A DNA stretch of 64,000 bases, taken from assembly GCA_948567375.1 (NCBI GenBank), contig OX419759.1, positions 61,718,593 to 61,782,592 on the forward strand, in the 5' to 3' direction. The translations under genes were made by a program, and so were the position numbers. The stretch comes from Lunularia cruciata (taxonomy: Eukaryota > Streptophyta > Marchantiopsida > Lunulariales > Lunulariaceae). Shown in pieces: positions 424 to 60,885 of this stretch (its first letter is position 1; each line of letters starts with the position of its first letter). The notes under the pieces were generated by a model, which made no database searches, was not told the DNA's origin, and worked only from the letters and a program-made list of their open reading frames with translations.

Positions 424-663
424 TGATGGAGATAATCTTTCAACTTATGGATAAACTATCCATGAGAGTTAGATTAATATGCACTCTAGGATTTGATGTT
501 GCTATAGAAATCTTGGAGCAACCTGAACCTTTTGTTTTCCCTAGAGTGGATTATTCTCAGATGGTGTTAGTCATGTATATACTCTATTAGTAATAGAGTG
601 AGAGAAAAAAAAAGAGAAAAAAAAATAAAATTTGAGAGAAAAGAAAGATAGTGAGGGGTTAAG

Positions 664-1848: not shown

Positions 1849-1872
1849 ACAACAAAGACTCCAAGGAAGAAG

Positions 1873-5490: not shown

Positions 5491-5538
5491 AGAGACCTTC
5501 ACTTTGAGGACAAAGTGAAAACTTAGTCTGGGGGTAAA

Positions 5539-6230
5539 TGTAACACCCATTTGTGCATGTGTGTGGTATTGCGATATTTAGCTTGGTATTACAAGTACTT
5601 AAGAGATATTATTTATATAGAGATAAAGGATGGTTCTATATTAGTCATGGTTAGCTAAAGTTAGTCATAGCTAAGATAGATGGGACCTTACTCTAGAGGA
5701 AGTAGAAAAGATGAGCACCACTATTTTGGATTTTAGTGTGTTGACTTGGTATTATTCCTAGGTGTTTGGCTTTGAGGAAAGAGTTGAGAACTCTTGGGCC
5801 CGCAAGCCTTTTTGTTTTGGATTCTTCTTTAGTCCAAGGATAGCCCATGTGAAGGAATCCTTGACTTAGTGGTTGGGTCAAGATAAGACCACATGCTTAG
5901 GGGAATATGCCCATGTGAATGGATACTCCTTTCTACTTTTTGACTTTACTTGACTTTTAGTCTAGTAACTTGAGTTACTACGGTAATTAGTAACTTTGGT
6001 ACGTAACTATTTCACAAGTATATAAACAAGGGGTGAGGAGGTACTCATCATCCTTTCATTTGCAACTATCTCTCTCTCATTGAGTTCTCTAGTGAGCAAT
6101 GTCTTGAGTCTTGGAGTGTTAGCCTTGGAGGAGTATGATGAAGTTGGGGTTCCTTGCCTTCTTAGTCCATGGTGCGCTACCATAATAGCCATCAGAGGTT
6201 CATCCTGAGTGAGAGACAGGCCGGCTCACA
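5539..6230 (+). repeat. 3' LTR of Gypsy-A (692 bp)
   Basis: Begins TGTAACACCC immediately after a purine-rich tract (GTCTGGGGGTAAA) and ends GGCTCACA at 6230. The other copy's LTR at 58977-59667 matches end to end, with TG...CA termini in both. The right flank starts GTACC; the left flank is outside the window, so the target duplication cannot be tested. Confidence 0.9.
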
Positions 6231-17672: not shown

Positions 17673-17872
17673 GACGACCAATACAGACAAAACATAAAGA
17701 GTGGACAAGGAGATCAAGATAGCGAAAATCGAGATCAAGTATCCACATAAGATCAAGTCTCCAAATCGGCTGGACGACCAATACAGAGAAAACATAAAGA
17801 GCGGACAAGGAGATCAAGATAGCGAAAATCGACATCAAGTATCCACATAAGATCAAGTCTCCAAATCGGCTG
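17673..17872. repeat. Tandem duplication, 2 x 100 bp
   Basis: A block starting GACGACCAATACAGA is repeated at 17773 with only a few substitutions. Confidence 0.95.
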
Positions 17873-22102: not shown

Positions 22103-23314
22103 CTATAGAGCAATGGATACACGCTGTCTAAAGTAAGCTACAAAGTATGAGAGTGAGAGCGGTACCCCATGACGCCTAACATGATAAGCTCTCGCGCACT
22201 CCCTGACAAATGTGTCAAATGCCGTGTCCATCGCTCCATATAACTCCAAGGCTAGAGGAACAAAGAGGTGACCTCGCTGCATGCCCCTATACTTGGAGAC
22301 CTTGCGACCTGCTGCTGCACTCACCGCCCATCCAGGGGGATGGGTAATCACTCCCTCCAAAACTGTATCTTGCGTAGGGTCCATCACCACGACATCCGCT
22401 ACTGTCACCTGATCATCTCGGACCAAGTATAAGTCTGCACTAACACGTGTCGTCTGCAACGCATACGAACGCTCCCTCCAAGCCAAGTATCCACTCTCTT
22501 GTGCCATAGCAAACACTATGTCTCTAATGGCATGATGGGTAGCTATCCTATGTCCTCCAAAAGGACACCGTGTCATGTGGACCGCCGCTGCATCTAGTGT
22601 AGAACCACACTCACAAGTGAGTAGTGAAGATGCATATGGGTGGACCAAACCTAGGCAAAACCTCATCGCTGTAGAGAAAGTAGCCGGTGCGAGTCGGAAA
22701 GCCCTAATGCATGGTCGAGCTAGGATCCACAAGCCTGCACCCTTGCCGGAGCAAGAGCGTAGACGTGCTCTAGTAGCCTGAGGAATGGACGAGTCAACTA
22801 AGAGAGAATGTAGCATATGCTCACACTGTCGCTCCATCAAGGAAGACTGTAGACCTCTAGTCCAATCTGACGATAGTGAAGCAAACAGTGGAAAACCCTC
22901 TCGTGCTCGTGGAGATAGACTATCTCTCGTCTGCCGCAATAACACCTGGAGAGAAAAGGATCCTCCCTCCACCTCTGTCACATAAGTCTCCAAAACCGGC
23001 CTATCAGCAACCACAAAACGAGAGGCAAGTAGGGGTGCCGAGAGAGCCCAACTACCCAAAAACGCTATAGGTGCCATCTCCTCCATAGAAAGCAAGCCAA
23101 CCCCACCACATGAGATCGGTAGAGCCGTCTGTCTACGTGCCAAATCCCCTATCACACACTCAAAAGTCCCTGGTCCAATAATATCACCAAAGACTCCCAT
23201 AATCCTCCTACCAAATGCTCTCAGACATGGTAGGAAGGACGGTGAGGGGGGAACTGTACGGATGAGGTAGGATGGTCGACGAGCAATACTGGAAGAGAGT
23301 ATACCAAATGCCAC
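22103..23314 (-). pseudogene. LINE-R C-terminal part: thumb, CCHC knuckle, restriction-like endonuclease
   Basis: A 403-codon open stretch forming the last third of the LINE-R protein. After a helical thumb-like region it has a knuckle (CECG...HMTRCPFGGH) near residues 237-260 and then RVSADLYLVRDDQVTVADV, which fits the R...D...D core of the restriction-like endonuclease (D-L-x-L about 10 residues before A-D-V). This nuclease nicks target DNA to start target-primed reverse transcription. It is open throughout, although the element is broken upstream by a TAG near 23318. The stretch 22140-23230 is closely matched by the copy at 59668-60670. Confidence 0.8.
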
Positions 23315-27701: not shown

Positions 27702-28788
27702 ATGGACAAACTCGTGTGCTCCAAACGAGGTCCGGGAGGGGGCAGTGCTTCAAACAGAGCATCCATGTGGAGCACTTATGTGTTGGCAACTGTGTTCTGC
27801 AGACAAGTTCTGCAGCTTGGGCAACTCGCCGATGCAGCACCAATTCTGGCTTCCAGTGCCGCAACATCACCCGGGGACCAGTTGAACGGGGACCAGTTGG
27901 TGTGCTGCCTACCTAACCTAAAAAATTTGTGCTTCCTACTGTTACTTCCCTGCGTGAAAGGAAACCCGCACATGAACTAGCAAAAGACCCTGAATATGTC
28001 TCGAAGTACAATTTGGCGTATGCCAGAATGAAGGATTTGCCGGGCGATGACCCCAGAAGTCTCCTCAAGCAATGGCATACACATTGTTCTTTCTGCAATG
28101 AGGCATTCAACCAAAAGTTCACTCCATATCCACAGGGTCAGCCGACCGGCCAACATCTCAAGTGCATTACAGTTGTACTTTTCTTCCATGGCATAGGATG
28201 TTAATATACTTCCATGAGAAAATTCTGGGTAGCTTGATCAATGATCCCGATTGCGCTCTTCCGTTCTGGAACAACCATTTTCCTGGAACTAATGCAAATT
28301 GGATAACTAGCATGTTCCTCGCGGACTTCCCACTCACATTCGCAAACGGCACCAAGGTCGACAATTTTCAACTCGTCAACGCCAACAGGAACCCGGCCCA
28401 TTTCCCACGGAAAGCTCTTCCACTGGCTTACAATGCTGAGGGTGAACTAAATGGAACGCAACATTTTACAGACCAGCAGATCATAGATGACAACTTGCTT
28501 ATCATTTGGAACGCTATGGTCAACCAAATCAGCAGTCAGCGATTTCTCGGTGGTCCTTACCGCAATGGTACCAACAATTCGGACAGTTGTGTCCCAGTGG
28601 GGCAAACTCCAGGAATAGCTGGTGCAGCAGAAGATCTGCACGACCATGCCCACGAATGGGTGGGCTTGTACAACCCAGAAGAGCCCGACAATCCAGACAT
28701 GGGAAATTTTATCTACGCTGGACGTGACCCCATTTTCTACAATCATCACACCAACATGGATCGCTTATGGGACGTGTGGAAAACTCAA
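27702..28788 (+). pseudogene. Polyphenol oxidase (tyrosinase family) pseudogene, frameshifted and 3'-truncated
   Basis: A close relative of the intact PPO at 47002-48837. It starts with the same MDKLVCS...MWSTYV leader. The frame shifts near 27915 (into LPTVTSLRERKPAHEL) and again near 28165, inside the Cu-A region. The WD pair of the family's LPFWNWDNH is deleted, leaving LPFWNNH. Cu-A (HCSFCNEAF; FLPWHRML) and Cu-B (HDHAHEWVG; FYNHHTNMDRLW) are still readable. Similarity ends at DVWKT (28788), where repeat R begins, so the DWL and KFDV-like regions are missing. It cannot encode an active oxidase. Whether an intron once lay at the break cannot be decided here. Confidence 0.9.
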
Positions 28789-29195
28789 AACATCCAAAAC
28801 ATGATGTTAATTTTTTCTCACGATCTTTAGAAAAATAACTTAAACCTGACACGTTATACGCGCCTGTAAACACGTTTGCTGTTGTGAAGTACCGAATGAA
28901 AGAGGCTAGGGCAATCCATTGTTCCACTGGCATTTTACTTAGCAGTAGTAACTTGAAGACGGTTCTGAAGACCACGTTTCTAATTGCTGTGGATATATAT
29001 GCCATGTTTCGCAACCTAGGAAACAAATATTTTATTGTCAAAGCGAGGAAATGTTTCGAGTTTCGTGCGATTTGAATGTCTAAGAGCTGGATAGCGTGGG
29101 ACGTTTCGAGTTTCTTGCGACCTGGATGTCTACGAGCTGGAAACTACCTTCTAGACATCAGCGTAAAACCTTTGGGAGTACAAAACTTTGTCCGG
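28789..29195 (+). repeat. Repeat R, copy 1
   Basis: About 400 bp repeated in inverted orientation at 61083-61493. It contains an internal 50-bp duplication (GTTTCGAGTTTC at 29053 and 29103) that is also present in the other copy. It abuts the broken end of the PPO pseudogene on the left and the Copia-A LTR on the right. Its origin is unknown. Confidence 0.85.
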
Positions 29196-34565: not shown

Positions 34566-35147
34566 ATGTTCTTCTTCTACATCCCTTCCTTCTTTGGCAT
34601 AGGGCTTAGGGGTTTGGAGAGACATACATTTCAGATCCAGACATCTCTAGGGGTGGTTGAACATAGTACATCACATGTGGAGAGCTCATTGTCCAAAATT
34701 CAGCCTGGTCATCCAATTGATAGTTATGTGGTGAGAGTTCAGACCATTGTAACAATAATTGAGTCATATGATGTGCTAGTTGGTGGAGCAATGTTATATC
34801 CCATGGGTTTCAATATTGACTATTGGGAGAAGATAATCTCCTATAGACCAAGTTGATAGTCAGGTGAGGGATGGGTATGTTGCCTACTAATACACTTTAG
34901 TAGTGGTAGTCTTGGTTTGCTGTAATCATGGACCATGGAATCAGTTTTAGCTTTGAATGGTACCGTTATTTGGCCTGGTGACTTATTGGAGGAGAACACC
35001 TATGTAGAGTTTACTCCAATACCAGAGGAGATCACTCGGATTTGGAGTACAAGTGGGATCATTTGGAGTACAATGGAACAACCGAGGAGGCATTGCAACA
35101 ACATGCAGATTTTTTGGTGCAATAAGCTTGGAGTGGACCCTTTGTAA
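34566..35147 (+). pseudogene. Gypsy-M protease-like region
   Basis: Readable on the + strand: VRVQTIVTIIESYDVLVGGA, then YPMGFNIDYWEKIISYRP, and after a frame change WPGDLLEENTYVEFTPIPEE. The D-V-L-V-G-x-x-x-L-Y-P-x-G-F pattern resembles the second half of a retropepsin domain (flap, then ILG-type strand) in gypsy elements. The catalytic D[ST]G itself is not evident, so the start of the domain is probably deleted. Confidence 0.5.
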
Positions 35148-35209
35148 CACCAAGAGACTATTGTGAGGATGAGCTTCTGGATTCTATCACATTGTCACCT
35201 TTGGATACC

Positions 35210-35990
35210 GCACTCATTGCTTAGTAGTATCTAGTAGATGGAGTATGTTTATTGGAGTTGTTTGGTGGGATTAGCATTGGACTAGCTATGGTATTATAGA
35301 CAAGTATACAAGTACAAAGGTACTTTTATGTATAGAGAGATGAGACTACTAGGCGAGTGCCTCTACACCATGTGGCACACTTGGTATATTTATATCCTAA
35401 GTTCTTACTAATGTTAGCAATCATGGGTTACCAAAAGACCCTACAAGTAGATATTTCCTTGTTGTGGGCATAGGATTTGGAGAGACATGGTCCCATTCAT
35501 TTGGTGATTTCTGGATGGCCATGTCAAGAACATATTTGTGTTGGTTGAGGTCAAGGTCTCAAAGATCCCTATTTTGGTGTATTATGGAAGATATTACATA
35601 TACTACAACATCTCTAGGTTCATAAGTCTATTTCTCTAACCTATATTTTAGAGAAATATTCCTTTAATGGGTGATTCTCATACTGGAGTGGTGGTGAGTA
35701 CACATCATGTCTATTTTTAGATGGGATCTACCATGTTGTTAGATGCAACCAATTAGTATGTCTTCCACTCCTATATCAATTTTAGAGGATACTTGGGAGC
35801 CAGATCTTGGACACAAGCTCATAAGAGGGAAAACACATAGAGTTTGGAGGTTCTTGAGGAGCTATATGGGTTGTTTTTCCTTCTAAATGAAGGATTTGGG
35901 TGCTCTACAAAGACTTGGTATTTGGATTGAGCATACTAGTGATAATGATACACTAGTTTTTTGACATCCCTTCAAATATAATGACATGGA
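35210..35990 (+). pseudogene. C5-cytosine DNA methyltransferase domain inside Gypsy-M
   Basis: Frame 2 of the + strand reads VCLLELFGGISIGLAMVL (35243 onward), the SAM-binding motif I of C5 methyltransferases (x-L-F-x-G-x-G/S-G). It then reads YFYV-x-RDE and, at 35489-35533, GPIHLVISGWPCQEH, which is motif IV with the catalytic Cys of PCQ. GQGLKDP follows. At 35642-35663 YILE plus, one base out of phase, NIP matches motif VI (E-N-V). The spacing from motif I to PCQ (about 88 codons) fits the family. TAG and TGA stops and a +1 shift show decay. The target-recognition region is not recognisable. The enzyme family methylates C5 of cytosine in DNA. Confidence 0.75.
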
Positions 35991-36009
35991 GAAAGCATTG
36001 ATTCATAGC

Positions 36010-36840
36010 TAGAGTAGAAACCTTTTTGAGGCTGGTTTGGTGGAGATTTCACATTGAAAGTATGCATCAGCTACGGTGATGCTAGCCAAGAAGGATATGC
36101 ATAGTAACTACATAGATAGGTAGATGTGTGGAGATTATTGTCCTATCAATTGATAGACTAAGGTTCATTGGTATGTCATACCTACACTTGAGGAGATCAT
36201 TGATGTGATTGTGTATACAAAGGTCTTTAGTAATTTGGATCTTTGAGCAAGATATCATCAATTTTTTATGAAAGAGGAGGATAAGACCAAGACAACATTT
36301 TGGGCTATTGATCCTTATGGCAAGGATGTATTATATCAATGGAGGTTCTTACCATTTGAGTTAAAGAATGCTCTTGTAGAGTTCCAAAGGGTCACGGATA
36401 GGATCCAAGCAGGGTTAGATTTTACTCAATGCTATATTGATGGCATTTTGGTCTATAGCACTACTGTAGAGGAGCATGAGAGACATTTGTTGGAGGCGTT
36501 TGAGAGATTGAGATCTCATGGACTCAAATTATATCTTGGGAAGTGTAGATTCTTCCACAAGTTGGTTGAGTATCTAGATCACACTATCTACCCTAGAGGA
36601 CTTAGTGTTTAAAAGACCAAGGTGGAGTCTATTGCACATATTCCTTGGCCTATGGATGTGAGCAAAGTGTGAGCATTCCTTGGGTCGGCAAACTTTTATA
36701 ACCAATATGTTAGAGGATTTAGTGCCATTGCCAAGGCTTTGACAAAGCTGACCAAGCTTACACAAGAGTGGTGCTGGGGAGATGAGTAAGAGAGAGCTTT
36801 TATAGAGCTCAAGGAGAGGTTGAGATCTGCCCTTATTCTT
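36010..36840 (+). pseudogene. Gypsy-M reverse transcriptase
   Basis: Recognisable on the + strand: IPTLEEIIDVIVYTKVFSNL, then an open run at 36268-36612 with KTTFWAIDPYGKDVLYQWRF, PFELKNALVEFQRV, and the catalytic box as CYIDGILVYS (36430-36459). The box should be Y-x-D-D; here the second Asp is Gly (36442-36444, GGC for GAC), so catalysis is lost. The connection region follows (FLGSANFYNQYVRGFSAIAK). Confidence 0.85.
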
Positions 36841-36857
36841 AGGAGATTGATCAAAGG

Positions 36858-37260
36858 ATGACCATTCATGTTCACATTGATTGGAGTATGTTAGGGCTTG
36901 GAGCAATGCTCACCCAACATGATGATGAGAAGAAGGAGTTTATGGTGGCATATGCTAGTTGGTCCAACAATTTAGTGAAGGTAAAGTATAGTTCATATGA
37001 GAGAGAGTGCTTGGAAAAAATATGGGTAGTATCACATTTCATATGTTACATATTTGGTAGCCTCTTCACTCTCATCATTGATCATCATTGATCATCAACC
37101 ATTGAAGTGGTTAATTGAGTCCAACAAGCTTTCAAGGAAGCTTGCACAATGAATTTTGATTTTACATGAGTATGAATTCATAGTTATTCATAGACTTGGA
37201 GTGGTGAACCGTGATGCAAGTGGGTTGAGTAGAAACTTATGTCCTAGCTAGCAAGATCAG
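36858..37260 (+). pseudogene. Gypsy-M RNase H
   Basis: An open frame at 36858-37091 with HIDWSMLGLGAMLTQHDDEK, YASWSNNLVKVKYSSYEREC and IIDHH, the usual RNase H succession of gypsy elements. It then continues with PLKWLIESNKLSRKLAQ and an R-x-GVVNRDASGLSR end after a shift. RNase H degrades the RNA template after first-strand synthesis. Confidence 0.8.
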
Positions 37261-37559
37261 ACCAAAGCATGTGGGCATGGTGAGATAGATGAGGAGCTGA
37301 TGCCACGTTGGTATGCATCTACCTTTCCTATGTATATTTTTTGAGACTTTGGTGGTATCTCTCTCAATGCATACAAGAAGAGTTATTGAGGTCACAGATC
37401 CAAAGTGTAGAGATATTGGTATAGTTCAGCAAGACATTTGTGATGATATCTTAGTGATAGATTATTTTAGTGCATTGGTGTTGTGGGTGGTATAGTTGGT
37501 GCCAAGGAGAGAGAATGTGTTCTTCAGAAAACCAAGGTTTAGATTGAAGAGCAAACACC

Positions 37560-38690
37560 TCTGCATGTATGGGGGAATGGTAGAGTGCAACTAGTACCAC
37601 TTCCATCTCAAAGACCACAATTGGTCCATCATGCCCATGAGGAGCTAGGACATTTTGGAGTAAAATGTACATATATCTTACTCCAAAGCCATTATTGGTG
37701 GCATGGTATGCATACTAGTGTATATTAGTATGTTGCTAGATGTGTGGTTTGTGATTGCGTTAGAGCATCATTTAATGCTTCTATGTCACAATTACACCCA
37801 TTACCTATCATGGGATTGGGTTGCCATTGGAGTTTGTACTTTGATGGACGTTTACCGTTGATTTTGAGATATCATTGATATGTTTTGGTTATGGTAAAGC
37901 AGTTCTCCAAGTGGACTGACTTGTTGGCACTTTTTGACAAGTCTAGTGAAGGGACAACTTACTTAGATCATGTTCTAAGTCATTTTAGGTGAAGTTTTGA
38001 TGGATCAAGATATAGAGTTCTTGGGGGAGTTTTAGGTCCTATGTGACAAGCCCTTGATTAGTCATCATACCACCTCTCAAGATCACCTTGAGGCAGATGG
38101 CTTAGCAAAGAGAGCGGTTCAAACTATGAAGAGAGGATTGTGGAAGTATGGTTTGTAGAGAGACCACTTGGGAGATTGGGATCTCCAATTACCTTGGTTG
38201 GCCATGGGCTTTCTGTTCAGTTGGCAAGCCTTCGTAACATCCTTCTCTTCTTACTTCTACTCTATGGACAAGACCCAAATCTACCTATAGCCATTTTTCA
38301 AGATGCTATTGTATTTTAGAACTTGGATGATCTAGACATATGGTGAGTGCATGTTCTCAATAGGTAGAGATCTTTCAGAGAGTGATGTTGATGGTCTTTG
38401 AGAACTTGACAATTGCTCAACATAGGGATACCTTATGTTATGCTACCATTCAAGGAGGAGGTTATAGACCCTTGATTGGTCAATTACATCCAAGTGATCA
38501 TGTATATCTACAATAGACAACATCGATGACACTTGATGTTATTACAAGCCACACTATCTGGAGAGTGCATGAGGCTTTGCCTTTTGCAGTCCTTATGTTG
38601 GAAGAACATGATGTAATTGTTTGGAAGGATCATGTGTGCAATTATGCACCATGTCACAGTCCAAAAATTGATGGTGCTATAGATCCAAGC
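37560..38690 (+). pseudogene. Gypsy-M integrase, degenerate
   Basis: An HHCC-like finger is visible (HHAHEELGHFGVKCTYILLQ, then CVVCDCVRASFNA), followed by HPLPIMGLGCHWSLYFDG at the expected place of the first catalytic Asp. The later core is broken by shifts. It ends in VWKDHVCNYAPCHSPKIDGA, leading straight into the PHD-like segment. Confidence 0.65.
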
Positions 38691-38717
38691 CTAGCACTTG
38701 TACTTGCAAGCTTGCGG

Positions 38718-38850
38718 TGTATGTTATGTAGCTCTTCTAGTGGAGTTGCTTCTATGTTAGTGTGTGATAGCTATTGGAGGATGGCATATGGCATGTTTGA
38801 CCCCTCCTTTCATGGTGGTTTCTCAAGGACAATGGTTATGTCTTAGATGT
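38718..38850 (+). pseudogene. PHD-finger pattern at the C-terminus of Gypsy-M
   Basis: First frame: CMLC (38718-38729), then MLVCD (Cys at 38763). After a one-base shift at about 38780: GWHMACLTPP (His 38785, Cys 38794), then GQWLCLRCM (Cys 38839 and 38848). Together this follows C-x2-C...C-D...W-H-x2-C-L-x-P-P...G-x-W-x-C-x2-C, the PHD signature; the fourth Cys position reads Tyr. PHD fingers commonly read histone H3 tails. The position, directly after the integrase tail, parallels the chromodomain of chromoviruses. Confidence 0.65.
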
Positions 38851-38916
38851 ATGTGACTTATAACTAGTTCACCCATTTATGATATAAATTGTAGACATGC
38901 AACTAATGATGGGGCT

Positions 38917-39760
38917 TGATAGCACCCGGCCTCCTAATCTTTGGCCACCATAAAGTATACCATATACTTGGATTAGATGGCTATCTGGAGTTATAGGGAC
39001 GTAACCACCAAGTAGGGAGACAATTGTGGCACTTAACGTTGATGTATGACTTATGTGTTGTTGTGCTTCTATAATATATGATGTTGATAGTGATTTATGT
39101 TGTATAGTAATGTATATGTTCATGACATCTATCATGCCATTTGTAATGCTGAAGGTAGGTTGCTCATACATTGGAGTAGTAGTGTTAATAGTCATGGGTA
39201 TTTTGGTAGTTACTCATGGACTACTTGTTGAATGTTAGGTTAGGGTTATTGATCATATAGTGGGACCCACCATCACTTGCACCATTTGCATTGTTAGATG
39301 TGATGTTAGTGGCACCATTAGGGTTGGAGACCTAGGTCAAGCAGAGGAGTATACTTTCAAAGTGCAACACTAGACAACTCACTTTTTTGATGTTGAGCTT
39401 TTGAGTTCTTGGCTATGGTGTATAGAGACCGGCAAGCATCACCTAGAGTCTCTTAGCTAGAGTGGGTGTGGCTTGATTGCAATCAATGCACATCTTAGTA
39501 GAGTGTTTAGTGAATGATCAAGTATTGATTTATGTGAATGTGATTTGAGTTGAAGAACAAATTGATTATTATGGCACTTTTAGCGTTCATATATGACTTA
39601 TGAGTGAGTTGTGCTTCTATAGTGTATGTTCTTGACAAGGATTTATATTGTGTAGCAATGTATATATGCATGAAACTTGATAGTAAAATGATAAAAATAG
39701 TTTTTTCTCATAAGGATGTGGGTTGGAACGACTAGATTTGAAGGAAATAGGTCACAATGT
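38917..39760 (+). repeat. Possible 3' LTR of Gypsy-M
   Basis: Starts TGATAGCACCCGGCC after the purine-rich GATGGGGCT. The right end is uncertain and is placed where family X sequence begins. Inside, about 100 bp near 39040-39120 recur in diverged form at 39575-39670 (GACTTATG...TTGTGCTTCTATA). Confidence 0.35.
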
Positions 39761-47001: not shown

Positions 47002-48837
47002 TCACTGGAATTGTTGTATGATGTTCCTGAACTTGATCGTAACATTGCTCTCCCTGAACTTTGGCACTATGGTAACCGTAGTGTTGAGATTGTAGTCCGT
47101 GATTCCCAGTCTCTTCAAGGACACACCAGTCGTAAATTGAATGTCAAAGAGTTCATACTCCTCATCTTCACCTGCCTCAGTTGCAATGCCGCTAGCCAGA
47201 TGGGAGAAGGTGCCTATATAGTCAGATAGATCTATATCAGTAGTTCTATCGGCTCCGGGATCGTCGATGTACAGGTCCAAGTGGACGTAGAGCCCATGGG
47301 GAATTTGAACGCCCTCTACTATGATTCCCTCGCTCAACTGGTCTACCCTGTTCACCTGCGTTCCTTTCAGATCCTCTTCCGTGGGAGCCCGACGCGGAAG
47401 CTTCAAGCACAGTGGACTATCCCCGATGAAGTTGTTTGCGTTGGGATCCACTTCGGGACAGTCGCTTGGTTCCCAGATTACAGTATTCATGGTGCCGGAG
47501 GCTGAGGTCGTGTTCTTCGGCTGGTGCTCGATCCACAGCTTATCTGATTCTGACATATCCTGGTACGAGTATCCCAGCTTTCCGCTGTCGAGTGTCTGAT
47601 TCACAGTCACGATCACCATGTCACCATTTTCATCGTAGAATGTAAACTCCGTGTTGAGGAAATCGGTGTCATTGCTGTCCATCCGTTTCCTGTCGCCTCC
47701 TGGAGTCGTGGTGTCAGAAAGAGTTTTCCACACGTCCCAAAAGCGGTCCATGTTGGCGTGATGAGTGTAGAACATTGGGTCACGTCCAGCGAAGATGAAG
47801 TTTCCCATGTCTGGATTGTCGGGCTCGCCTGATTTTTTGTACAAGCCCACCCATTCGTGCACAGGGTTGTGAAGTTCTTCTGCGGAACCAGATATTCCTG
47901 GAGATTTCCCCTCTGGGACAGTACTCGTCGAATGGTTGGTACCACTGCGGTAAGGACCACCGAGAAATCGCTCACTGCTGATTTGGTTGACCACATCGTT
48001 CCAAATCGTATTCAAGTTTCCATCTATGATTTCCTGGTCCGTAAGATTCTGCATTCCATTTAGTTCACCCTCAGCATCGTAAGCCAGTGGAAGAGCTTTC
48101 CCTGGGAAATGGGCCGGGTTCCTGTTGGCGTTGACGAGTTGAGAATTGTTGACCTTGGTGCCGTTTGCGAATGTGAGTAGGAAGTCCGCGAGGAACATGC
48201 TAGGTATCCAATTTGCATTAGTTTCAGGAAGATGGTTGTCCCAGTTCCAGAACGGAAGAGCGAAGTCGGGATCTCCGATCAATTTACCCAGAATTTTCTC
48301 ATGGAAGTATATTAACATCCTATGCCATGGAAGAAAAGTCCAACTGTAATGTATTTGGAGATGTTGGCCTGTTGGCTCATCCTTTGGATAGGGAGTCGAT
48401 CTTTGGTTGAACGCCTCATTGCAGAAAGAACAATGTATATGCCACTGGTTGAGGAGACTTCTGGGGTCATCGTCCGACAAATTCTTCATTCTGGCATACG
48501 CCAAATTGTACTTCGAGACATATTCAGGGTCTTGTGCTAGCTCATGTGCGGGTTTCCTTTCACGCAGGGAAGTAACAGTAGGAAGCACAAATCTTTCGGC
48601 CCTTTTTTTAGATTGCGGTAGGCAGCACACCAACTGCTCCCCGTCATTCCTTTTAAGGGTGATGTTGCGGCAATGACCTTGGCTGGAAGCCAGAATTGGT
48701 CCTGCATCGGCAAGTTGCCCAAGCTGCAGAACTTGTATACAGAACACGGTCGCGAACACATAAGTACTCCACATGCATGCTGTCTTTGAAGCACTGCCCC
48801 CTCCCTGACCTCGTTGGGAGCACACGAGTTTGTCCAT
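47002..48837 (-). CDS. PPO: Polyphenol oxidase (tyrosinase/catechol oxidase family), intact, intronless
   Basis: The 611-residue protein oxidises phenols to quinones with O2 at a dinuclear copper site. Cu-A: HCSFC (His135, with Cys139 placed for the thioether), His163 (QIHYSW) and His172 (LPWHR). Cu-B: His323 and His327 (ELHNPVHEW), then THHANMDRFW (359-368). LPFWNWD at 195-200 is typical. The DWL region (FLNTEFTFYDENGD...KLGYSYQDM) and a KFDV-like end (GLYVHLDLYIDDP) complete the plant layout. The N-terminus has a hydrophobic stretch (residues 22-40) that would be a signal peptide if translation starts at Met22. With Met1 it is preceded by a polar leader; both Mets are conserved in the pseudogene. 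The CC pair at 71-72 matches the family's N-terminal disulphides. Secretion rather than plastid targeting is inferred. The reading frame is intact. Confidence 0.95.
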   Translation of the reverse strand: MDKLVCSQRGQGGGSASKTACMWSTYVFATVFCIQVLQLGQLADAGPILASSQGHCRNITLKRNDGEQLVCCLPQSKKRAERFVLPTVTSLRERKPAHELAQDPEYVSKYNLAYARMKNLSDDDPRSLLNQWHIHCSFCNEAFNQRSTPYPKDEPTGQHLQIHYSWTFLPWHRMLIYFHEKILGKLIGDPDFALPFWNWDNHLPETNANWIPSMFLADFLLTFANGTKVNNSQLVNANRNPAHFPGKALPLAYDAEGELNGMQNLTDQEIIDGNLNTIWNDVVNQISSERFLGGPYRSGTNHSTSTVPEGKSPGISGSAEELHNPVHEWVGLYKKSGEPDNPDMGNFIFAGRDPMFYTHHANMDRFWDVWKTLSDTTTPGGDRKRMDSNDTDFLNTEFTFYDENGDMVIVTVNQTLDSGKLGYSYQDMSESDKLWIEHQPKNTTSASGTMNTVIWEPSDCPEVDPNANNFIGDSPLCLKLPRRAPTEEDLKGTQVNRVDQLSEGIIVEGVQIPHGLYVHLDLYIDDPGADRTTDIDLSDYIGTFSHLASGIATEAGEDEEYELFDIQFTTGVSLKRLGITDYNLNTTVTIVPKFRESNVTIKFRNIIQQFQ

Positions 48838-49760
48838 CTTCGGGTCGGGTTAACCGGAAGTGGTCTAAGTGGATTTCAGGATCGTGTACACAGTACTAGT
48901 AGAAATTGCAGTGCTTCATTCGGCCGCCAGGTTGACAGAGGGGGGTGCCCTTATGCCTGTTACGTAAACGCGGTAAACATTCAGGACAGGTATGTATGTG
49001 TCAGTAGAAGGTGGGAAAGACAATCGACAGATTCTAGCGCTACAAAATCCAGGGGACAAGATTGAGTGAGCGCAAGAGAAAAGACACCCAGACATAGTTA
49101 ACGTAAAAATCAAGTCTTTAGCTTGGACACTGGAAGACAGTTCCCAAATAAAATTTCATCTTCGTGGATGGATAATGGGTATGCAGTACCCAAGAATGTT
49201 AAATCGATCTTACGTAGCATTCCTACAATATTTGGCAACAAGCACGAATCGTGATCTTTTCTAGACCATTTCAGCGTATCTAGCATTTCAACAATCCTCC
49301 AACATCATTGAAATAAACAATGCATACACAATGCATTTCGAATGGCAGGCAATCTGAACCTCATCTTTATCATCTTGAGAGAAAGCCGGGTACCCTGTGA
49401 GCCAAACAAGAATGAGATAGTGCAGGGCAAATGCAATTCAAACTGCTTGAGTGCGAGGAAGGACTTGGAATTGACACGACTCGACAATCCTTTTATATGA
49501 GAGGAATAACGTTGAGACGGCAAGGCTTCCATTATTGCACGAATATCCTCCTCATCGTGTCCACAGTATCCACATGTGATTCCGAAGTATCATTCACTTT
49601 TCCCCGGAAATTCACTTCTGAATTTGTTTTGACAGTAAACCAATATTGCTCCATGATCATATCTCTGTTAGAAAAGTTATCGTCGAGATATCCACACTCA
49701 AGCAAAGAATACACTCATCATTAGTAAAACAAGCTAAATAGAAAGTATTTATCGTTCAAT
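48838..49760 (-). promoter_or_regulatory. 5' leader and upstream region of the intact PPO
   Basis: 48838-48950 matches the leader of the PPO pseudogene (inverted), including CACTGCA and GTACTGTGT blocks, so the transcript probably includes it. A TATA-like CATATAAAAGG on the - strand near 49493-49502 is far upstream (about 650 bp) and would need a leader intron. It is not assigned with confidence. Confidence 0.35.
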
Positions 49761-50339: not shown

Positions 50340-53300
50340 GACAAAGAACAAATCATTCAGTACGGAAATATAGAATGTTTGAAGGTTGTCCAGCAGGTGC
50401 TCCTTCAGATCTTGATGAGCGTGCTTGGAGATACGTTATAGCAGTGCATTACCTTTCTTTGTGTGTATTCCATCTTTGTTTAGTTACATACAAGGAGTTG
50501 ATACTTTATCAGGAGGTTTGGGATACATTAGCAATTTTTTACACATGTGGCCAAAGGCAAGAAAGCTTGAATTGAAGTATCAACTAATGGAGGTTAAGAA
50601 CGACAATTCAAGTATCACCAATTATATTTATCACATTTGTGGTTTAGTTGAACAGTTGAATATCATTGGAGTTAATGGTGAAGATGATGATCTCATTCTT
50701 CATACTATCCAATGTCTAGCAAAGGAGGATAAACATTTTGAACATCTATAGCAATTAGAGATACTTATCCTTAATTTGACAAGCTAGTCATAATGTTAGT
50801 CTTTGAAGAAATACAGTTGCAAGGTGGTGGCAATGGACTTGTTGTTCAAAATCAGGTGCTTTTATTGGGACAGGTCAAGCAAGAGGTAGAGGACATGGAA
50901 GTTCCCTCTGTGGAGGTACCATTGGTAGTGGTCAATCCTCACAGGGACATTATGTAACTCAAGGCAAGTCTACTATGGACAGGTTCTGCAATTACTGTAA
51001 ATCAAAAACTATTATGAGAAGACTTGTTTTAAGATAACTTGTCTTGATATGTGGCATAAAAGAGTAGGCACATGAACCTACAAAGATTTAAGGTGCTATC
51101 TACCTTAGATCTGTTTATGGATTTTTTTTTTATCATAAATGGAGGTTAAGTATCACCAATTATATTTATCACATCCATGGTTTAGTTAAACAATTAAATA
51201 GCATTAGAATTAAGGTTGACGATGATTATCTTATTCTTCATGCTATTCAAGGTCTCCCAAAGGATTATAAAATTTTTGAGATATCTATAGCCATTAGAGA
51301 TACTTATCCTTGATTTGACAAGCTAGTCATGATGTTAGTCTTTGAAGAAGTGCAGTTGCAAGGTGGTGGAAATAATCTTGTTGCTCAAAATCAGGTGCTA
51401 TTTATTGGGAGACATCAAGCAAGACTTAGAGGATCTTGAAGTTCACTTTGTGGAGGTGCCATTGGTAGAGGTCAATCCTCACAAAGACATTATGTAATTC
51501 AAGGCAAGTCCACAATAGACAGGTTCTGCAATTATTGTAAATCAAAAAATATTCTGAAAATACTTGGTTGAAGACACAAGCTTGTACTTGAACAGGGAAA
51601 CTCCATATACAGAGAAATATTCCTACTTGGATAATCATCTCCTAATGATGATTTATATGGCTGCATCATTGACCATGAATAAACAAGAATTTACCACCCA
51701 GAGTTTATGAACATTGTACTAGTGTATTTAATCCAAAAACATGACACGTTATACTAGTGTTTTTAATTCCAAAAATACTTTGATTTGAATTATTGGTTGC
51801 ATACAGATGCTGATACTGAACATAATATTACTCCAATAGTCTCTATCACATTCTCATCTCCATCAAGGAATTTTAGTGGTTTAGGAGAAGTCATTCATGT
51901 GTCTACAATCACCAAGAACCTAGTTTCCATTGACCAAATTATTGAGAACAATTTCAGGTTATATATAACCAAGATGGTGTGTTTGTTGACAAGTATGAGA
52001 AATGTGCTATCCCTGTAGGATGCAAATTTGGATCCAAAATAGTGCAGATAGTTATGTTAGACATCGAGATACCCACTATTACAAATCAGACTGCTATGTT
52101 TAGTCATGGCTAGATTGCCCTCCAGACCTTGGTAAGAAAGCAATTTGTTGCATGTGGAATTTTAAGATCTAGAGAAATTTGGATGGTTTATTGAGTTGGT
52201 ACAAGACAAGGCTCATTGTAAATGACTGTTCACAGCAATATGAAATTGATATTCATGAGACATTCAGCCTTCTTGCCAAGAGGTCATCAATTCATATTCT
52301 CTTAGCATTGGCCACTTTAAACAAGTTGAAGTTCTATTAGATGGACTTTAATAACACTTTCCTAAATGAAAATTTGGAGCAGGAGGTGTGTATAATCCAA
52401 CCTCTTGGATATGGAGATCCAAGATATTCAAACAAGGTTTGTTAATGGAAATAGTCTCTTTATGGACTTAAGCAAACTCCACGAGCTTAGAATGCCAAGA
52501 TAATTTCTGTCTTTTATCCATTGGATTTGAGTTTGGCCATCAGATTCTTTGCTTTACAGACTACAAGTTAGTGACAATATAATTTTATTGATCATCTATG
52601 GTGATGACTTGATTATCCCCGTAGCGCTCAAGATCTCATCCAGCAGGTAAAATTTCAGTTGAAGGACTTGGGAGAACTCAAATATTTCTTGGGTATTGAG
52701 TTTATTCAACACTATAATGACTTTTGGTTACTACCTTTGGCTACTAATATTCTCTCAACATGTTGGAGAAATTTGGTATGATGGTGTGTAAATCCTCTCC
52801 CAAGTTTTGTTAAGTTAACTGCCAACGATGGTGAGTTGTTAGTTGATCCAAATATGTATAGTTAGATTGTTGGCAGTTTGAGTAATTTGACTTTACCAGA
52901 CCAAATCTAACAAGTCTAGTTGCACTAGTAAGTAGATTTATACAAGCACATCTCAACACAGTACAAGGGATTTTATGTTATGTGAAGTTTACCATTTAAT
53001 TTGATCTTCACTATTTACTAGTGGGTTACCCATTCCACAAGGTTCTATTGATATGGATTCGGCAAGAAGTACTCAAGATAGAAGATCTTCATCATGTTAT
53101 GTTTTTAACCTTGTAAGTTTTGCAATTAGTTGGTCATAAAGAAGCAATTGTTGCTTTATCATTGATACAAATAGAATATAGTGGTGCCACTAATGCTACA
53201 AGTGAATTAATTTGGCTTCATGCCTTACTAAAAATATGGAATATGCTTTTTCATGATCTTATAATCTTATATAAAACTAATATCACCAATATTAAACTTC

Positions 53301-56281: not shown

Positions 56282-56465
56282 TGTTAGGGTGTCGGGAGAA
56301 GTCCTGAAGTCGGTCATTCTGTCGTAGAAGATTTGGATTGAAAATCTTTCTCTTGTGCCAAAAGCTCCAAATTAAAACCCTTGGAGTTTGAGCACTCTCC
56401 CTTCTCATACTTGCTCTCAACCACATCTATGGATGCTATCCCCTTATCTTTGTTTGGGTTAGGAG

Positions 56466-57427
56466 CTACTTGGGTTTCACTACCTCCCTCTTTCCCTCTA
56501 TTGGCTCCCTCATAACCCTTTCCTCCATGGTAAGTGGAATTTGGGCAATTCCTTTGGATATGGCCTCTTCCTCCACAACCAAAACAATTTCTATCATTGA
56601 AATTTTTGGCTGGTTGACCTCTCTATATGGATAGTTTCTATAACTACTAGGCCCTCTCCTTACATTCTGATCCACCTCTCTCTTCTCCCATAGTTGCACC
56701 ACATTGATCTTGAGATCTGCAAGTTGTTCTGTGATAGTTTGAAGTGGATCCTTTGGTGGAGGTGCAATAACTAGAGTAACTACTACTTGTGGTGCCACTC
56801 TTGCCACAAAAGTATTAGAAGTTCCACCATAATTGTAGCCTTGAGGAGGATTCACAACCTCCTTCACCACCAAATCACTCTCATCTCCTTCCAAACTCTC
56901 CTCCATACGAATTGCAATCTTGATAGCTTCAACCTTGGAAGAAAGTTTCTCATATCTCACCTTGCTTCTAATTTGTGATCTCAACCCTCCCACAAAATTC
57001 TTGGTGAGCATGGCCCCTATGCCAATCATAGTAGTCTCCACATCATCTCCACCCTTCCTCAACACTTTGCAAAATTTGGACTCTAACATTTCCCCTCTTT
57101 GCACATAGACTCTCACTTTCTCTCCATATCCTGATTTGAGAAAGGTAACGTCACTCATCAATCTCTTATAACTCTCATCTGGGAGAAAGTTCTCAATGAG
57201 TGTTGAAGTCAAACTCTCCCAAGACTCTTCTTCCCATCTCTCCTCTCTCTCTTTTGGTATTCTGACTCATACCATGTAAGTGATGCATCCTCAAAGAAAT
57301 CTGGTAATAATGAGGCCCACTCATTCTTCCTCCTCTCATTATTTCCTATGCAAGCTCTCTTAAAGTCTTTCACAAAGTCCTCCATATCTTCTCTATCCTT
57401 GCCAAAGAAAACCGAAAGTTTCTTCAT
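56466..57427 (-). pseudogene. Gag of Gypsy-A, second copy, frameshifted
   Basis: Starts at ATG 57427 (MKKLSVFFGKDREDMEDF), equivalent to the start at 664 in copy 1. A one-base loss near 57225 shifts the frame; the rest is open from 57212 (MTSTLIENFLPDESYKRL) through the gag core. The zinc-knuckle region is out of frame (IEIVLVVEEEAISKG in place of the CCHC). It is dead. Confidence 0.88.
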
Positions 57428-57689
57428 CTTAACCCCTCATTATCTTTCTTTTCTCTCAATTTTTTTTCTTTTCTCTCACTCTATAACTAATAGAAAATAT
57501 ACATGACTAACACCATTTGAGAATAATCCTTTCTATGGAACACAAAAGGTTCAAGTTTCTCCAAGATTTCTATAGTAACATCAAATCTTAGAGTGCATAT
57601 TAATCTAACTCTTATGGATAGTTTATCCATAAGTTGAAAGATTATCTCCATCACTAATCTTGAGAACTAGTTTATGAAGGTGGTAGTAT

Positions 57690-58118
57690 TTATGTAGTTG
57701 TACTAAGACTCTCTCCAATATACTTCACCAAAGTCTCCAAAAATTCTTTTACTCCACTCCACTTGTGTCCTTTTGGAAGTCCTTCCACTCCACAAACCTC
57801 ACACAACTCCTTGGTCTTAGATCTTCTCCCTCCTAATCTTGGTGAAGAAGGTCCAACATTAAAACCCAAGTCAAATAAACTTCTCTTTTCTCTCAATTCA
57901 AAAGTCAATGGACATGAACTTGCTTTATGTCCCTTCTCTTTACATAAAAAGAATTTAGACTCACTCTTTCCTCCAAGTGGTGTAGATTTTTGAATCCTCT
58001 CAACACTCTCTTCAAATTCTATTGTAAATTCTCTTTTCTTCAAATCCACCCCTGCAATCACCTCAAATCCTTGAAGAACCTTACATAGTCTTAATTTCCA
58101 CTCTTGATGACACTCCAT
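57690..58118 (-). CDS. Extra zinc-knuckle ORF of Gypsy-A, second copy
   Basis: 142 codons from ATG 58118 to the stop at 57690, with no interruption. It has the same layout as the ORF at 7-423. Here the first CCHC has lost its second Cys-pair partner in part (FFLCKEKGHKASSC; first Cys is Phe), and the second cluster's last Cys is Trp (KGHKWSGV). The N-terminus (MECHQEWKLRLCKVLQGFEV) shows the start missing from copy 1. It lies between the leader and gag, about 260 bp before gag. An open frame in a broken element suggests either recent insertion or former selection on this ORF. Confidence 0.6.
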   Translation of the reverse strand: MECHQEWKLRLCKVLQGFEVIAGVDLKKREFTIEFEESVERIQKSTPLGGKSESKFFLCKEKGHKASSCPLTFELREKRSLFDLGFNVGPSSPRLGGRRSKTKELCEVCGVEGLPKGHKWSGVKEFLETLVKYIGESLSTTT

Positions 58119-58954
58119 GTTCCCAAGATGAATCTAAACACTCAAACATGCTTTTTGTTGCTCTCAAACTCTTCATGCATGAGATCTCAACTCCGTAGAA
58201 TTGACACTTCCTCACAATTTCACTCAAATCTCTCAACTTTTATGTGAAAATCCTCTTAAATTTTGCATATTTATTCACAACTCTAGGGCGTCCCTCCCTG
58301 AAAAATTCAAATCTTTTCATTGAGCCATTCGGCCTAGACATCTTTCTATTCAGCACACATATTTCAGATTTAGTCTAAAAACCAACCCCCTCACTTCAAA
58401 AACTCATACCACCCTACTCAAGAATGATCTCTCTCTAATTTTTGTGTCAATAGGTAGGATACAACTTACTTAATTTTCTTGAAAAGTTTCACAAAAATAC
58501 ATTAAAAATTGAATAAATGGAAGATTCTGTACAATTTTCCAAAGAGCATGCAGTTGTGGGAACAATTTACCCTATCAACTTTCAAAAATTCTAGCCCAAT
58601 GTGCATAATAGCTCTCACAATAATTCTAAGTGTGATAACTGGAAGACAACCCAAGCTATCATGTGTAGAAATTTGAATTCCAGATCTCAAACTTGAGATT
58701 TTGCCCAAAATCACCTTAATTCCCAAAATTTGCAATCCACTTCACACAATCTCTCCAAATCCTCTCATGTGTACAAGATGTATAAAATCAACTCAAAGAC
58801 ATCATAATGAACTACAAGGTATACAAATGAATATTGGTTCTCTAATATAAGTTCAGTCTTCTCCTCTCCTAATGTTCTCTCCAAGTGAGCTCTCATAACC
58901 TCCTTCTGCCTAATGTAGAATTGAACACAAAACATTATCTTACCTTCTAGAGAG
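58119..58954 (-). other. 5' leader of Gypsy-A, second copy
   Basis: Non-coding sequence between the primer-site region and the extra ORF; nothing else recognised. Short frames at 58502-58735 and 58765-58998 show no motifs. Confidence 0.6.
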
Positions 58955-58974
58955 GTCCCGGCAACAAAACCAAA
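58955..58974 (-). other. Primer-binding-site region of Gypsy-A
   Basis: On the - strand, TGGTTTTGTTGCCGGGACCT starts two bases after the LTR end. It shares TGG and GTTGCCGGG with the tRNA-Asp type site used by some plant gypsy elements. The middle differs, so the primer tRNA is uncertain. Confidence 0.45.
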
Positions 58975-58976
58975 AA

Positions 58977-59667
58977 TGTGAGTTGGCTTGCATCTCACTC
59001 AGGATGAACCTCTTATGGCTATTATGGTAGCACACCATGGACTAAGAAGGCAAGCAACCCCAACTCCGTCATACTCCTCCAAGGCTAACTCTCCAAGACT
59101 CAAGATATTGCTCACTAGAGAACTCAATGAGAGAGAGATAGTTGCAAATGAAAAGATGATGAGTACCTCCTCACCCTTTGTTTATATACTTATGAAATAG
59201 TTATGCACCAAAGTTACTAATTATCGTAGTAACTCAAGTTACTAGACTAAAAGTCAAGTAAAGTCAAAAAGTAGAAAGGAATATCCATTCACATGGGCAT
59301 ATTCCACTAGCATGTGATCTTATCTTGACCCAACCACTAAGTCAAGGATTCCTTCACATGGGCTATCCTTGGACTATAGAAGAATCCAAAACAAAAAAGC
59401 TTGCGAGCCCAAGAGTTCTCAACTCTTTCCTCAAAACCAAACACCTAGGAATAATACCAAGTCAACACACTATAATCCAAAATAGTGGTGCTCATCTTTT
59501 CCACTTCCCATAAAGTAAGGTCCCCTCTATCTTAGCTATGACTAACTTTAGCTAATCATGACTAATGTAGAACCATCCTTTATCTCCATATAAATAATAT
59601 CTCTCAAGTACTTGTAATACCAAACTAAATATCACAATACCACACACATGCACAAATGGTTGTTACA
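58977..59667 (-). repeat. 5' LTR of Gypsy-A, second copy (691 bp)
   Basis: Reads TGTAACAACC... to ...CAACTCACA on the - strand, matching 5539-6230 over its length with about 90% identity by eye. Its outer end abuts LINE-R sequence at 59668. Confidence 0.92.
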
Positions 59668-60885
59668 GTCCTTCCTTTCACGTCTAAGAGCATTTGATAG
59701 GAGGATAATGGGAGTCTTTGGCGATATTATTGGACCAAGGACATTTGAGTGTGTGATAGGGGATTTGGCATGTAAATAGATGGCTCTGCCAATCTCATGT
59801 GGTGGGGTTGGCTTGCTCTCTATGGAGGAGATGACACCTATAACATTTTTGGATAGTTGGGCTCTCTTGGCACCCCTACTTTCCTCTCATTTTGTGGTTG
59901 CTGATAGGCCAATTTTGGAGACTTATGTGACAGAGGTGGAGGAGGATCCTTTCCTCTCTAGATGTTATTGCGGAAGATGAGAGATAATCTATCTCCACGA
60001 GCATGAGAGGATTTTCCACCTTTTGCTTCACTATCGCCAGATTGGACTATAGGTTTAGAGTCTCTCCTTGATGGAGCAATAGTATGAGCATACGCTACAT
60101 TCTCTCTTAGTCGACTCATCCATTCCTCAGGCTATTAGAGCATGTCTTTGCTCTTGCTCCGGCAAGGGTGCAGGCTCTTGGATCCTAGCTCAACGGTGCA
60201 TTAGGGCATTCTAAGTCACACCAACTACTTTCTCTATAGCAATGAGGTTTCACCTAGTTTTGGTCCACCCATCTACATCTTCATTACTCACTTGTGAGTG
60301 TGGTTCTAGACTAGAGGCAGCAGTGGTCCACATGACATGCTGTCCTTTTGGAAGATAGAGGATAAATACCCATGATGACATTTGGGACATAGTGTTTGCT
60401 ATGGCACAAGAGAGTGGATACTTGGCTTGGAGGGAGCGTTCATATGCTTTGCAGACAACACGTGTTAGGGTAGACTTATACTTGGTCTGAGATGATCAGG
60501 TGACAATAGCAGATTGTGGTTATGGACCCTGAATGGGATACCGTTTTGGAGGGAGTAATTACCCATCTCCTTGGATGGGCGGCAAGTGCAACAATAGGTT
60601 GCAAGGTTTCACTCTCATACTTTGTAGCATATTTTAGTTAGCATGTGTCTATTGCTCTATAGAGGGTAGTGGCTGGTGCAATCCATAGGAGAGCAACCAC
60701 ATTAGGTGATGTTTCTTTGGATGCTCCAGTTGTGTGTAGACCGTACAACTTGCATAGCTCGGATATCTTAGGTGCGGTAGGGCAGATTTCTCATTTAGAC
60801 TCTATTGGGGCTTAGCCCCATTTTAACTTTTTGTCTCTCCCTTGTATGGCTTGATGGGGTCTTCCCATCCTTTTTTTTTCCTACG
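59668..60885 (+). mobile_element. LINE-R, second copy: C-terminal third and 3' UTR, decayed
   Basis: Parallels 23230-21866 inverted. The reading LPISCGGVGLLSMEEM, then LDSWALLAPLLSSHFVVADR, is open at 59780-59980. Then stops and shifts appear through the knuckle (CECG equivalents near 60290) and endonuclease. The 3' UTR stem is at 60806-60820. The 5' side is cut exactly at the Gypsy-A LTR. Confidence 0.88.

What the first reader, a model, noticed from the sequence alone, without database searches (positions are those of the whole stretch)
35210..35990. A gypsy retrotransposon carries a C5-cytosine DNA methyltransferase
Seen in one frame: motif I ELFGGISIGL (35255-), then GPIHLVISGWPCQEH (PCQ catalytic motif, 35519-35527), then LE plus NIP (motif VI) one base out of phase, between protease-like and RT sequences of the same element. 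Established: these motifs in this order define C5 methyltransferases. From memory, capture of such enzymes by LTR elements has been reported in dinoflagellates and a charophyte alga; I cannot check whether this land-plant lineage is described. Inference: the element could methylate its own or host DNA, perhaps to shape silencing.
Basis: partly seen in the sequence, partly recalled or inferred. Interest (0 to 1): 0.88.

Follow-up and report, generated by a model that had tools for sequence, protein, structure and literature searches.

The report
Liverwort jumping gene carrying DNA methyltransferase
The window holds a dead copy of a very abundant plant retrotransposon, apparently of a liverwort, that carries its own DNA-methylating enzyme of the animal DNMT3 type; such elements were described from algae, and here one is found in large, partly intact numbers in a land plant.

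Summary
Confirmed. Window 34615-39673 is a decayed, 5'-truncated Ty3/Gypsy element with a C5-methyltransferase segment (about 35201-35751). This copy is dead: stops, frame shifts, and about 780 bp with motifs VIII-X deleted. The family is not: the host genome holds 999 exact copies of its A|B 3' junction, and 20 of 20 copies sampled by RT alone carry the enzyme between protease and RT. By sequence, fold (pLDDT 94; the 50 best PDB matches listed are DNMT3 entries) and tree it is un-rearranged DNMT3-type, not a recent capture of the host's DNMT3 or DRM. Relatives occur in Marchantia, Calypogeia, Sphagnum, Closterium and algae, so the kind is that of KnitGypsy-Dnmt3 (2018). New here: land-plant abundance; gag-PR-MTase joined to RT-RH-INT-PHD by an in-frame UAG-CAR-YYA (leaky-stop motif); and split repeats A...B-A-B with 4-bp target duplications and a palindromic B|A junction, read as a retroviral-type integrase opening a joined-end intermediate inside its LTR. 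Self-methylation is inferred only: old copies decay at CG and CHG, but so does a methyltransferase-free element.

The parts
34615..39673 (+). Decayed, 5'-truncated copy of the methyltransferase-bearing Ty3/Gypsy family
   Evidence: blastn to family members in two blocks, 78.9% and 81.7%
34615..35200 (+). C-terminal protease remnant (without D-S-G site) and linker
   Evidence: translation in pieces beside L006-L008
35201..35751 (+). N-terminal part of the DNMT3-type methyltransferase, motifs I to VI and the start of VIII; stops and frame shifts
   Evidence: motif I 35255-35284, PCQ 35519-35527
35745..35751 (+). Scar of a deletion of about 780 bp (motifs VIII-X and the ORF1 stop), overlap of the two matching blocks
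35752..38846 (+). Relic of RT, RNase H, integrase and PHD finger
   Evidence: PF00078 at 36247-36609; domain order from intact ORF2
39023..39127 (+). Repeat B1
   Evidence: matches B of L012; end read by eye
39130..39567 (+). Repeat A2, after a 2-bp spacer
   Evidence: matches A of L011 (39132-39553); edges read by eye
39568..39673 (+). Repeat B2, 3' end of the element

Best explanation
The window holds a dead relic of a high-copy Ty3/Gypsy retrotransposon family, about 9.95 kb when whole, in a land plant that is most likely a complex thalloid liverwort. The order is A1 - [gag - protease - DNMT3-type C5-methyltransferase] - UAG - [RT - RNase H - DDE integrase - PHD finger] - polypurine tract - B1 - A2 - B2. 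Shown: domains and order, the stop and its context, split repeats, 4-bp target duplications, purifying selection on the methyltransferase, DNMT3 kinship. Inferred: most ribosomes stop at UAG, so the methyltransferase is made and packaged at gag-like rather than RT-like amounts. Reverse transcription makes a cDNA with an LTR of the form B-A; its two ends are joined (the A2|B2 junction), and the integrase opens the joined molecule at the palindrome GACA-GC-TGTC between B and A. The packaged enzyme methylates this double-stranded intermediate before integration, so that the new copy enters the genome already marked. Confidence by step: identity and architecture 0.97; translation through UAG 0.8; joined-end intermediate opened at the palindrome 0.65; methylation of the element's own cDNA as the selected function 0.45.
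For: 20 of 20 RT-sampled copies carry the enzyme; Pfam domains; DNMT3A as best PDB match and DNMT3 entries as best folds; retrotransposon enzymes on one side of a branch, 92/94; dN/dS 0.37; TAG CAG CCA in 10 of 10 and in L005-L007, TAG CAA TCA in L029; exact 4-bp duplications in 12 of 14 copies with both ends readable; 2-bp spacer at 18 of 18 B|A junctions and end-derived extra bases at 2 of 16 A|B junctions; the B|A palindrome kept in L076; integrase cleavage of palindromic 2-LTR junctions on record for a spumavirus (PMC1180852, abstract).
Against: No activity shown; in yeast the Klebsormidium relative gave no methylation, called inconclusive by its authors (PMC5890265). CG/CHG decay is the same kind in a methyltransferase-free element. 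L015 and L027 have no target duplication. Eight rows inside the RT-MT clade, some in long proteins, show no methyltransferase, so it is not indispensable everywhere. No circular molecule was observed in the host.
Confidence: 0.7

Rival explanations
1. The methyltransferase does not act on the element's DNA. It is kept for another reason, for example methylating RNA or the tRNA primer, or acting as a nucleic-acid-binding part of the particle.
For: It sits on the gag side of the stop. No element-specific methylation mark was found. The Klebsormidium enzyme gave no methylation in yeast, an inconclusive test (PMC5890265).
Against: Sequence and fold are DNMT3, with the tRNA enzyme DNMT2 far weaker (E 0.034 against 1.1e-10). 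Catalytic Cys kept in 45 of 46 and motif VI Glu in 48 of 48 rows.
Confidence: 0.25
2. The enzyme serves self-restraint: it brings early silencing of new copies so that the host is spared and the family persists.
For: Old copies are strongly decayed at CG and CHG. Many copies are broken: 5 of 20 RT-sampled methyltransferase frames lack stop and indel. The idea of slowing transposition is raised in PMC5890265.
Against: A methyltransferase-free element is decayed in the same contexts, so silencing does not need it.
Confidence: 0.15
3. The A...B-A-B layout comes from ordinary linear integration with unusual choice of cDNA ends, not from joined ends or a circle.
For: Target duplications and TG...CA-like ends are those of normal integrase insertion.
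Against: The polypurine tract precedes B1, not A, and A1 ends where the internal region begins, so the cDNA ends should be B and A. The A2|B2 junction equals those ends joined, with rare extra bases from either side.
Confidence: 0.25
4. Artefact: a host or foreign methyltransferase gene happens to lie inside one element in this window.
For: The window copy alone is decayed and rearranged.
Against: 20 of 20 RT-sampled copies and relatives in other species have it in the same place.
Confidence: 0.01

Closest known systems
KnitGypsy-Dnmt3 of Klebsormidium nitens (de Mendoza et al. 2018, PMC5890265, parts 1-4 of 7 read)
   Same: Gypsy domain set, un-rearranged DNMT3-type enzyme in the polyprotein, DIRS-like repeat structure, purifying selection. 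Three K. nitens RT sequences fall inside the branch with the MT-RT order (SH-aLRT 92)
   Different: Land plant, at least hundreds of copies; leaky stop, 4-bp target duplications, palindrome and PHD finger described here. Whether the K. nitens element has them was not tested; its methyltransferase was not in hand
SymbioDIRS-Dnmt3 of Symbiodinium (same paper)
   Same: DNMT3 in a retrotransposon with A...B-A-B repeats; two domain orders
   Different: Tyrosine recombinase and DIRS there; DDE integrase with target duplications here
PAT and Ngaro tyrosine-recombinase elements (PMC4157794, passages)
   Same: Split direct repeats A1-B1-A2-B2
   Different: No tyrosine recombinase seen here; integrase H2C2 and rve instead
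Spumavirus 2-LTR circle cleavage (PMC1180852, abstract and section list)
   Same: A retroviral-type integrase acting on a palindromic junction (inferred here)
   Different: There the palindrome is the LTR-LTR junction; here it lies inside the LTR and is inherited in the copies

Membership tests
Ty3/Gypsy LTR retrotransposon | RT - RNase H - DDE integrase order | tested here: met
   PF00078, PF17917/PF17919, PF17921, PF00665 in that order in three ORF2 sequences
Ty3/Gypsy LTR retrotransposon | Short target-site duplication | tested here: met
   4 bp exact in 12 of 14 copies with both ends readable, of 19 examined
Ty3/Gypsy LTR retrotransposon | Identical LTR at both ends | tested here: not met
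   A at the 5' end, B-A-B at the 3' end; works like one through an inferred B-A LTR
Ty3/Gypsy LTR retrotransposon | Primer binding site and polypurine tract | tested here: inconclusive
   AGGGGGG before B1; an ATCAGAG core after A1 resembles the initiator-tRNA site only from recall
KnitGypsy-Dnmt3 | Gypsy pol with un-rearranged DNMT3 and DIRS-like repeats | tested here: met
KnitGypsy-Dnmt3 | Common descent of methyltransferase and RT | tested here: inconclusive
   RT: K. nitens inside the MT-RT branch, 92; methyltransferase of K. nitens not in hand
DIRS/PAT elements | Tyrosine recombinase, no target duplication | tested here: not met
   DDE integrase, no recombinase hit in the ORFs scanned; 4-bp duplications
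DNMT3 methyltransferases | Motif order I to X un-rearranged, DNMT3 fold | tested here: met
DNMT3 methyltransferases | De novo DNA methylation activity | not testable with these tools
   needs expression
Plant DRM | Rearranged motif order (VI-X before I-IV) | tested here: not met
   order I to X here; the host DRM (L002) is rearranged
Chromoviruses | Chromodomain at the integrase C-terminus | tested here: not met
   no chromodomain hit; PHD finger (PF00628, E 7.4e-10 to 6.3e-11) there instead in three ORFs

The most novel reading that the evidence does not exclude
An old green-plant lineage of Ty3 elements that works through joined cDNA ends: a circle, pre-methylated by a DNMT3 enzyme made at gag dose in front of a leaky stop, is opened by a retroviral-type integrase at a palindromic site kept inside the LTR. 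Integration of an already methylated molecule through an LTR-internal attachment site would be a life cycle that I know of for no DDE-integrase retroelement.
Probability: 0.3. Interest if true: 0.85.

Novelty: new variant of a known kind. Interest (0 to 1): 0.64.

Why it matters
[quoted passage not shown] Here a land plant carries such a family with about a thousand exact 3' junctions, and named Marchantia proteins join methyltransferase and RT. So retrotransposons may use, and not only suffer, 5mC in land plants, and in a group with a model plant in which to ask why. The leaky stop and the split repeats give testable predictions about dose and integration. The grouping of the retrotransposon enzymes argues against an acquisition private to Klebsormidium, although its own enzyme was not in the tree.

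Tried and rejected
Nested-insertion artefact: rejected by the RT-based sample. Capture from the host's own DNMT3 or DRM: against it stand motif order (DRM) and the AU test (p 0.0008 for own copies + host DNMT3); a tree in which all retrotransposon enzymes join the host DNMT3 without DNMT3A/DRM is not rejected (p 0.257). Bacterial origin: the pattern scan of bacterial and archaeal genomes gave five loci: four Streptomyces with 30-45% local matches and L029, itself such a retrotransposon in a bin labelled cyanobacterium. Viral origin: 6 stretches of viral contigs matched a pattern, none encodes a relative; viral folds match less well than DNMT3. Element-specific methylation mark: looked for, not found. 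Solo A-B elements: none seen among 12 A|B places without an exact B|A; 11 are B-A-B, one is partial. Frame shift between the ORFs: rejected, both are in one frame. Alignment A1 held a stray one-residue row by my error and was not used. In one search my own-copy RT rows failed to load; one search repeats the tree with one.

Full report
What was checked. The window copy runs from 34615 to 39673 and matches family members in two blocks, 34615-35751 and 35745-39673. Between them about 780 bp are missing, from motif VIII of the methyltransferase to just past the stop that ends ORF1; the break lies where a family member has two copies of GCAGCCAG. The copy also lacks A1, gag and the protease active site. 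It is a relic.

The host. The window lies in a 566-Mb assembly of 74 contigs; eight contigs met here are 60-85 Mb long. Its DRM is closest to three Riccia sorocarpa proteins (63-74% identity), then Sphagnum and Calypogeia (54-55%).

The family in the host. A PF00145 search scored 123 matches, most over the same profile stretch (about 48-120), in open frames of up to 1428 aa; the two best (L001, L002) are host DNMT3-like and DRM genes by my reading. A search with the 331-aa methyltransferase of one copy scored 121 matches, all 96-100% identical, and one with 280 aa of RT scored 138, all at least 98%. These are the scored best of 13,596 and 38,982 first-look candidates: lower bounds, not counts. 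The exact 27-base B|A junction occurs 504 times and the exact A|B junction 999 times, reversed controls 0. A copy can hold more than one A|B (L022 does), so 999 is a count of 3' ends, not of elements.

Does the family always carry the enzyme? I took about every seventh row of the 138 RT matches, 20 in all (one already held was replaced by its neighbour), and fetched 1330 bp upstream of each. All 20 carry the methyltransferase in place, 19 over its whole length and one over 646 of 993 bases, and all 20 stretches end in TAG. The scored RT matches are the most intact, so this says nothing of old copies. Five of the 20 frames have neither stop nor indel. Pooled dN/dS among the 20 is 0.37 (189 pairs). 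In the first set, chosen by PF00145, pooled values are 0.37 for the methyltransferase (14 rows), 0.41 protease and linker (13), 0.23 RT (10), 0.32 RNase H (10), 0.42 integrase (10), 0.46 gag (9), 0.54 PHD plus tail (10). All include neutral change after insertion.

Coding plan. ORF1 (about 1428 aa) holds gag (PF03732 only at E 0.067-0.2, below cut-off), a CCHC-like knuckle and an LDSGAQ protease site read by eye, and the methyltransferase. ORF2 (1037 aa) holds RT, RNase H, H2C2, rve and a C-terminal PHD finger. The two are in one frame, separated by one TAG followed by CAG CCA in 10 of 10 copies and in L005-L007. In L029, whose methyltransferase is 52% identical, the same place reads TAG CAA TCA. 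UAG followed by CARYYA is the type I readthrough motif of plant viruses (PMC5382211, passages). If it works here, the methyltransferase is made with gag and the polymerase part is the minor product. None of the ten copies first fetched shows both ORFs open throughout.

The PHD finger. Its best solved relatives include CHD4, KMT2D/C, PHF12, KDM5B and PHF21A. That several of these read unmodified histone H3 is recalled; a chromatin-reading role for the finger is a guess. PHD fingers are annotated in many of the listed relatives.

The enzyme. Against the PDB the best match is DNMT3A (E 1.1e-10), aligned from motif I through VIII and, weakly, at IX-X; HaeIII (8.8e-5), HhaI (0.015), DRM2 (0.016) and DNMT2 (0.034) follow far behind. 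A model from 34 sequences has mean pLDDT 93.9 and pTM 0.92. The 50 best Foldseek matches listed are all DNMT3 entries, some complexes with DNMT3L, TM up to 0.84 by target length. In the 48-row alignment of retrotransposon enzymes the catalytic Cys is kept in 45 of 46 rows with a letter there, and the motif VI Glu in 48 of 48. In a 43-row tree (15 of 58 rows dropped as short or redundant) the 34 retrotransposon enzymes are one side of a branch (bootstrap 92, SH-aLRT 94), beside host DNMT3, human DNMT3A fragments and four DRMs (98/87). Joining the host's DNMT3 to the host's elements is rejected (p 0.0008). Long branches are present, and a deeper tie of all elements to plant DNMT3 is not excluded (p 0.257).

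Spread. The first protein search gave 76 hits among the 7996 best candidates, the named ones being Marchantia, Calypogeia, Sphagnum and Monoraphidium besides one protein labelled Obscuribacterales. The RT search gave 1443, 120 listed, adding Riccia, Closterium, Klebsormidium, Haematococcus and a few animals. Of those 120, 33 show a methyltransferase by a profile of the family: 20 before RT and 13 after RNase H. Some are short: the only Haematococcus match is 29 residues (22 bits), and P0128, P0159 and P0193 have 30-40. In P0058 the methyltransferase lies before the integrase. The second order forms its own RT clade: 13 rows and one unseen, SH-aLRT 99; 21 rows, support 100, 8 of them without a visible methyltransferase, some in proteins of 1368-1737 aa. 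In one search the other rows, with three of Klebsormidium, form the other side (92); in the 120-row tree the first order is not a clade apart from the second, and the outgroup is not clean. Of the other 87 proteins, 73 have at most about 300 residues before RT, so absence is not shown there; 14 have more, animals among them. Either the domain moved within the polyprotein, or related donors were used twice.

Terminal repeats. A (about 450 bp) stands at the 5' end; B (107 bp), A and B at the 3' end. The ends are TGTCACG...GCACGACA. Of 19 copies examined, both ends could be read in 14. Twelve have an exact 4-bp duplication, eleven by script and L021 by eye because the script took a neighbouring B; L015 and L027 have none. 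The B1|A2 junction has a 2-bp spacer at 18 of 18 places found (GC at 15), making GACAGCTGTC. A polypurine tract (AGGGGGG in most) precedes B1. The A2|B2 junction is the same at 14 of 16 places; the two exceptions carry bases that follow A1 (L027/L028) or precede B1 (L041). Joined cDNA ends would leave this. Eleven of 12 further 3' ends are B-A-B. A1/A2 identity is 97.3-99.8% in six of seven copies, 88.2% in L015. Split repeats are known from PAT and Ngaro elements with tyrosine recombinase (PMC4157794, passages) and were noted for KnitGypsy-Dnmt3; integrase and duplications here show the DDE route. Cleavage of palindromic 2-LTR junctions by integrase is on record for a spumavirus (PMC1180852, abstract); a similar HIV-1 paper (PMC1905944) was seen in a listing only.

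A distant witness. L029, L074 and L076 belong to one 9,285-bp contig binned as a cyanobacterium. It carries gag, protease site, methyltransferase, TAG, RT, integrase and PHD finger, then polypurine tract, B-like sequence and GACAGCTGTC, and its last 127 bases repeat its first 127. I read it as a retrotransposon of an alga or bryophyte in the wrong bin. The closure may be an assembly effect of the repeats, so it is no proof of a circular molecule.

Mutation record. From a young copy to the window copy, C to T is 0.48 at CG, 0.39 at CHG and 0.11 at CHH, against 0.04 transitions at A/T. Another Ty3 element of the window, without methyltransferase, changes in the same contexts, on few sites: 0.35 of 20 CG, 0.24 of 41 CHG, 0.065 CHH. 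The two tyrosinase genes do not (CG 0.09-0.11). CpG observed/expected is 0.36-0.51 in the stretches of ten young copies, 0.11 in that other element and 0.76 in a tyrosinase gene. Host methylation is enough to explain this; an element-made mark is neither shown nor excluded.

Print. KnitGypsy, SymbioDIRS and three related phrases occur in one held paper. Searches for liverwort, Marchantia, PHD, split-repeat and circle versions listed no paper on this family that I could tell from title or abstract start; I did not open most of them, and most subscription papers are not held. A 2025 survey mentions DNMT3 in retrotransposons of streptophytes and dinoflagellates, citing the 2018 paper (PMC12344493, passages). 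PMC6453930 was seen in passages only.

Noticed in passing
window 28102-28827 (+) and 47005-48849 (-): Two tyrosinase / polyphenol-oxidase type genes (PF00264, the second also PF12142 and PF12143) in inverted orientation, 615-aa open frame in the second.
   Followed up: partly
window 1-6230 and 56348-59667: Two inverted copies (92-94% alike) of another Ty3 element without methyltransferase; gag 655-1845 and a 955-aa open pol frame 2281-5145, with CpG observed/expected only 0.11 although the frame is open.
   Followed up: partly
P0156, P0157, P0178, P0181, P0184 and others: A sister architecture with the methyltransferase after RNase H instead of between protease and RT.
   Followed up: partly
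L029/L074/L076; P0031: Retrotransposon sequence with this methyltransferase sits in bins or records labelled Synechococcales and Obscuribacterales; probably misbinned eukaryote DNA.
   Followed up: partly
window 22106-23314 (-): A 403-aa open frame without any Pfam hit at E 0.01, with a second, inverted copy at about 59665-60839.
   Followed up: no
window 17673-17872 and 50610-51574: Recent tandem duplications: a 100-bp unit at 97% and a unit of about 540 bp at 83-87%.
   Followed up: no
P0080: A EukProt protein from a TRINITY transcript assembly, 68% identical to the RT part of ORF2 and annotated RT-RH-INT-PHD: a sign that a relative is transcribed.
   Followed up: no
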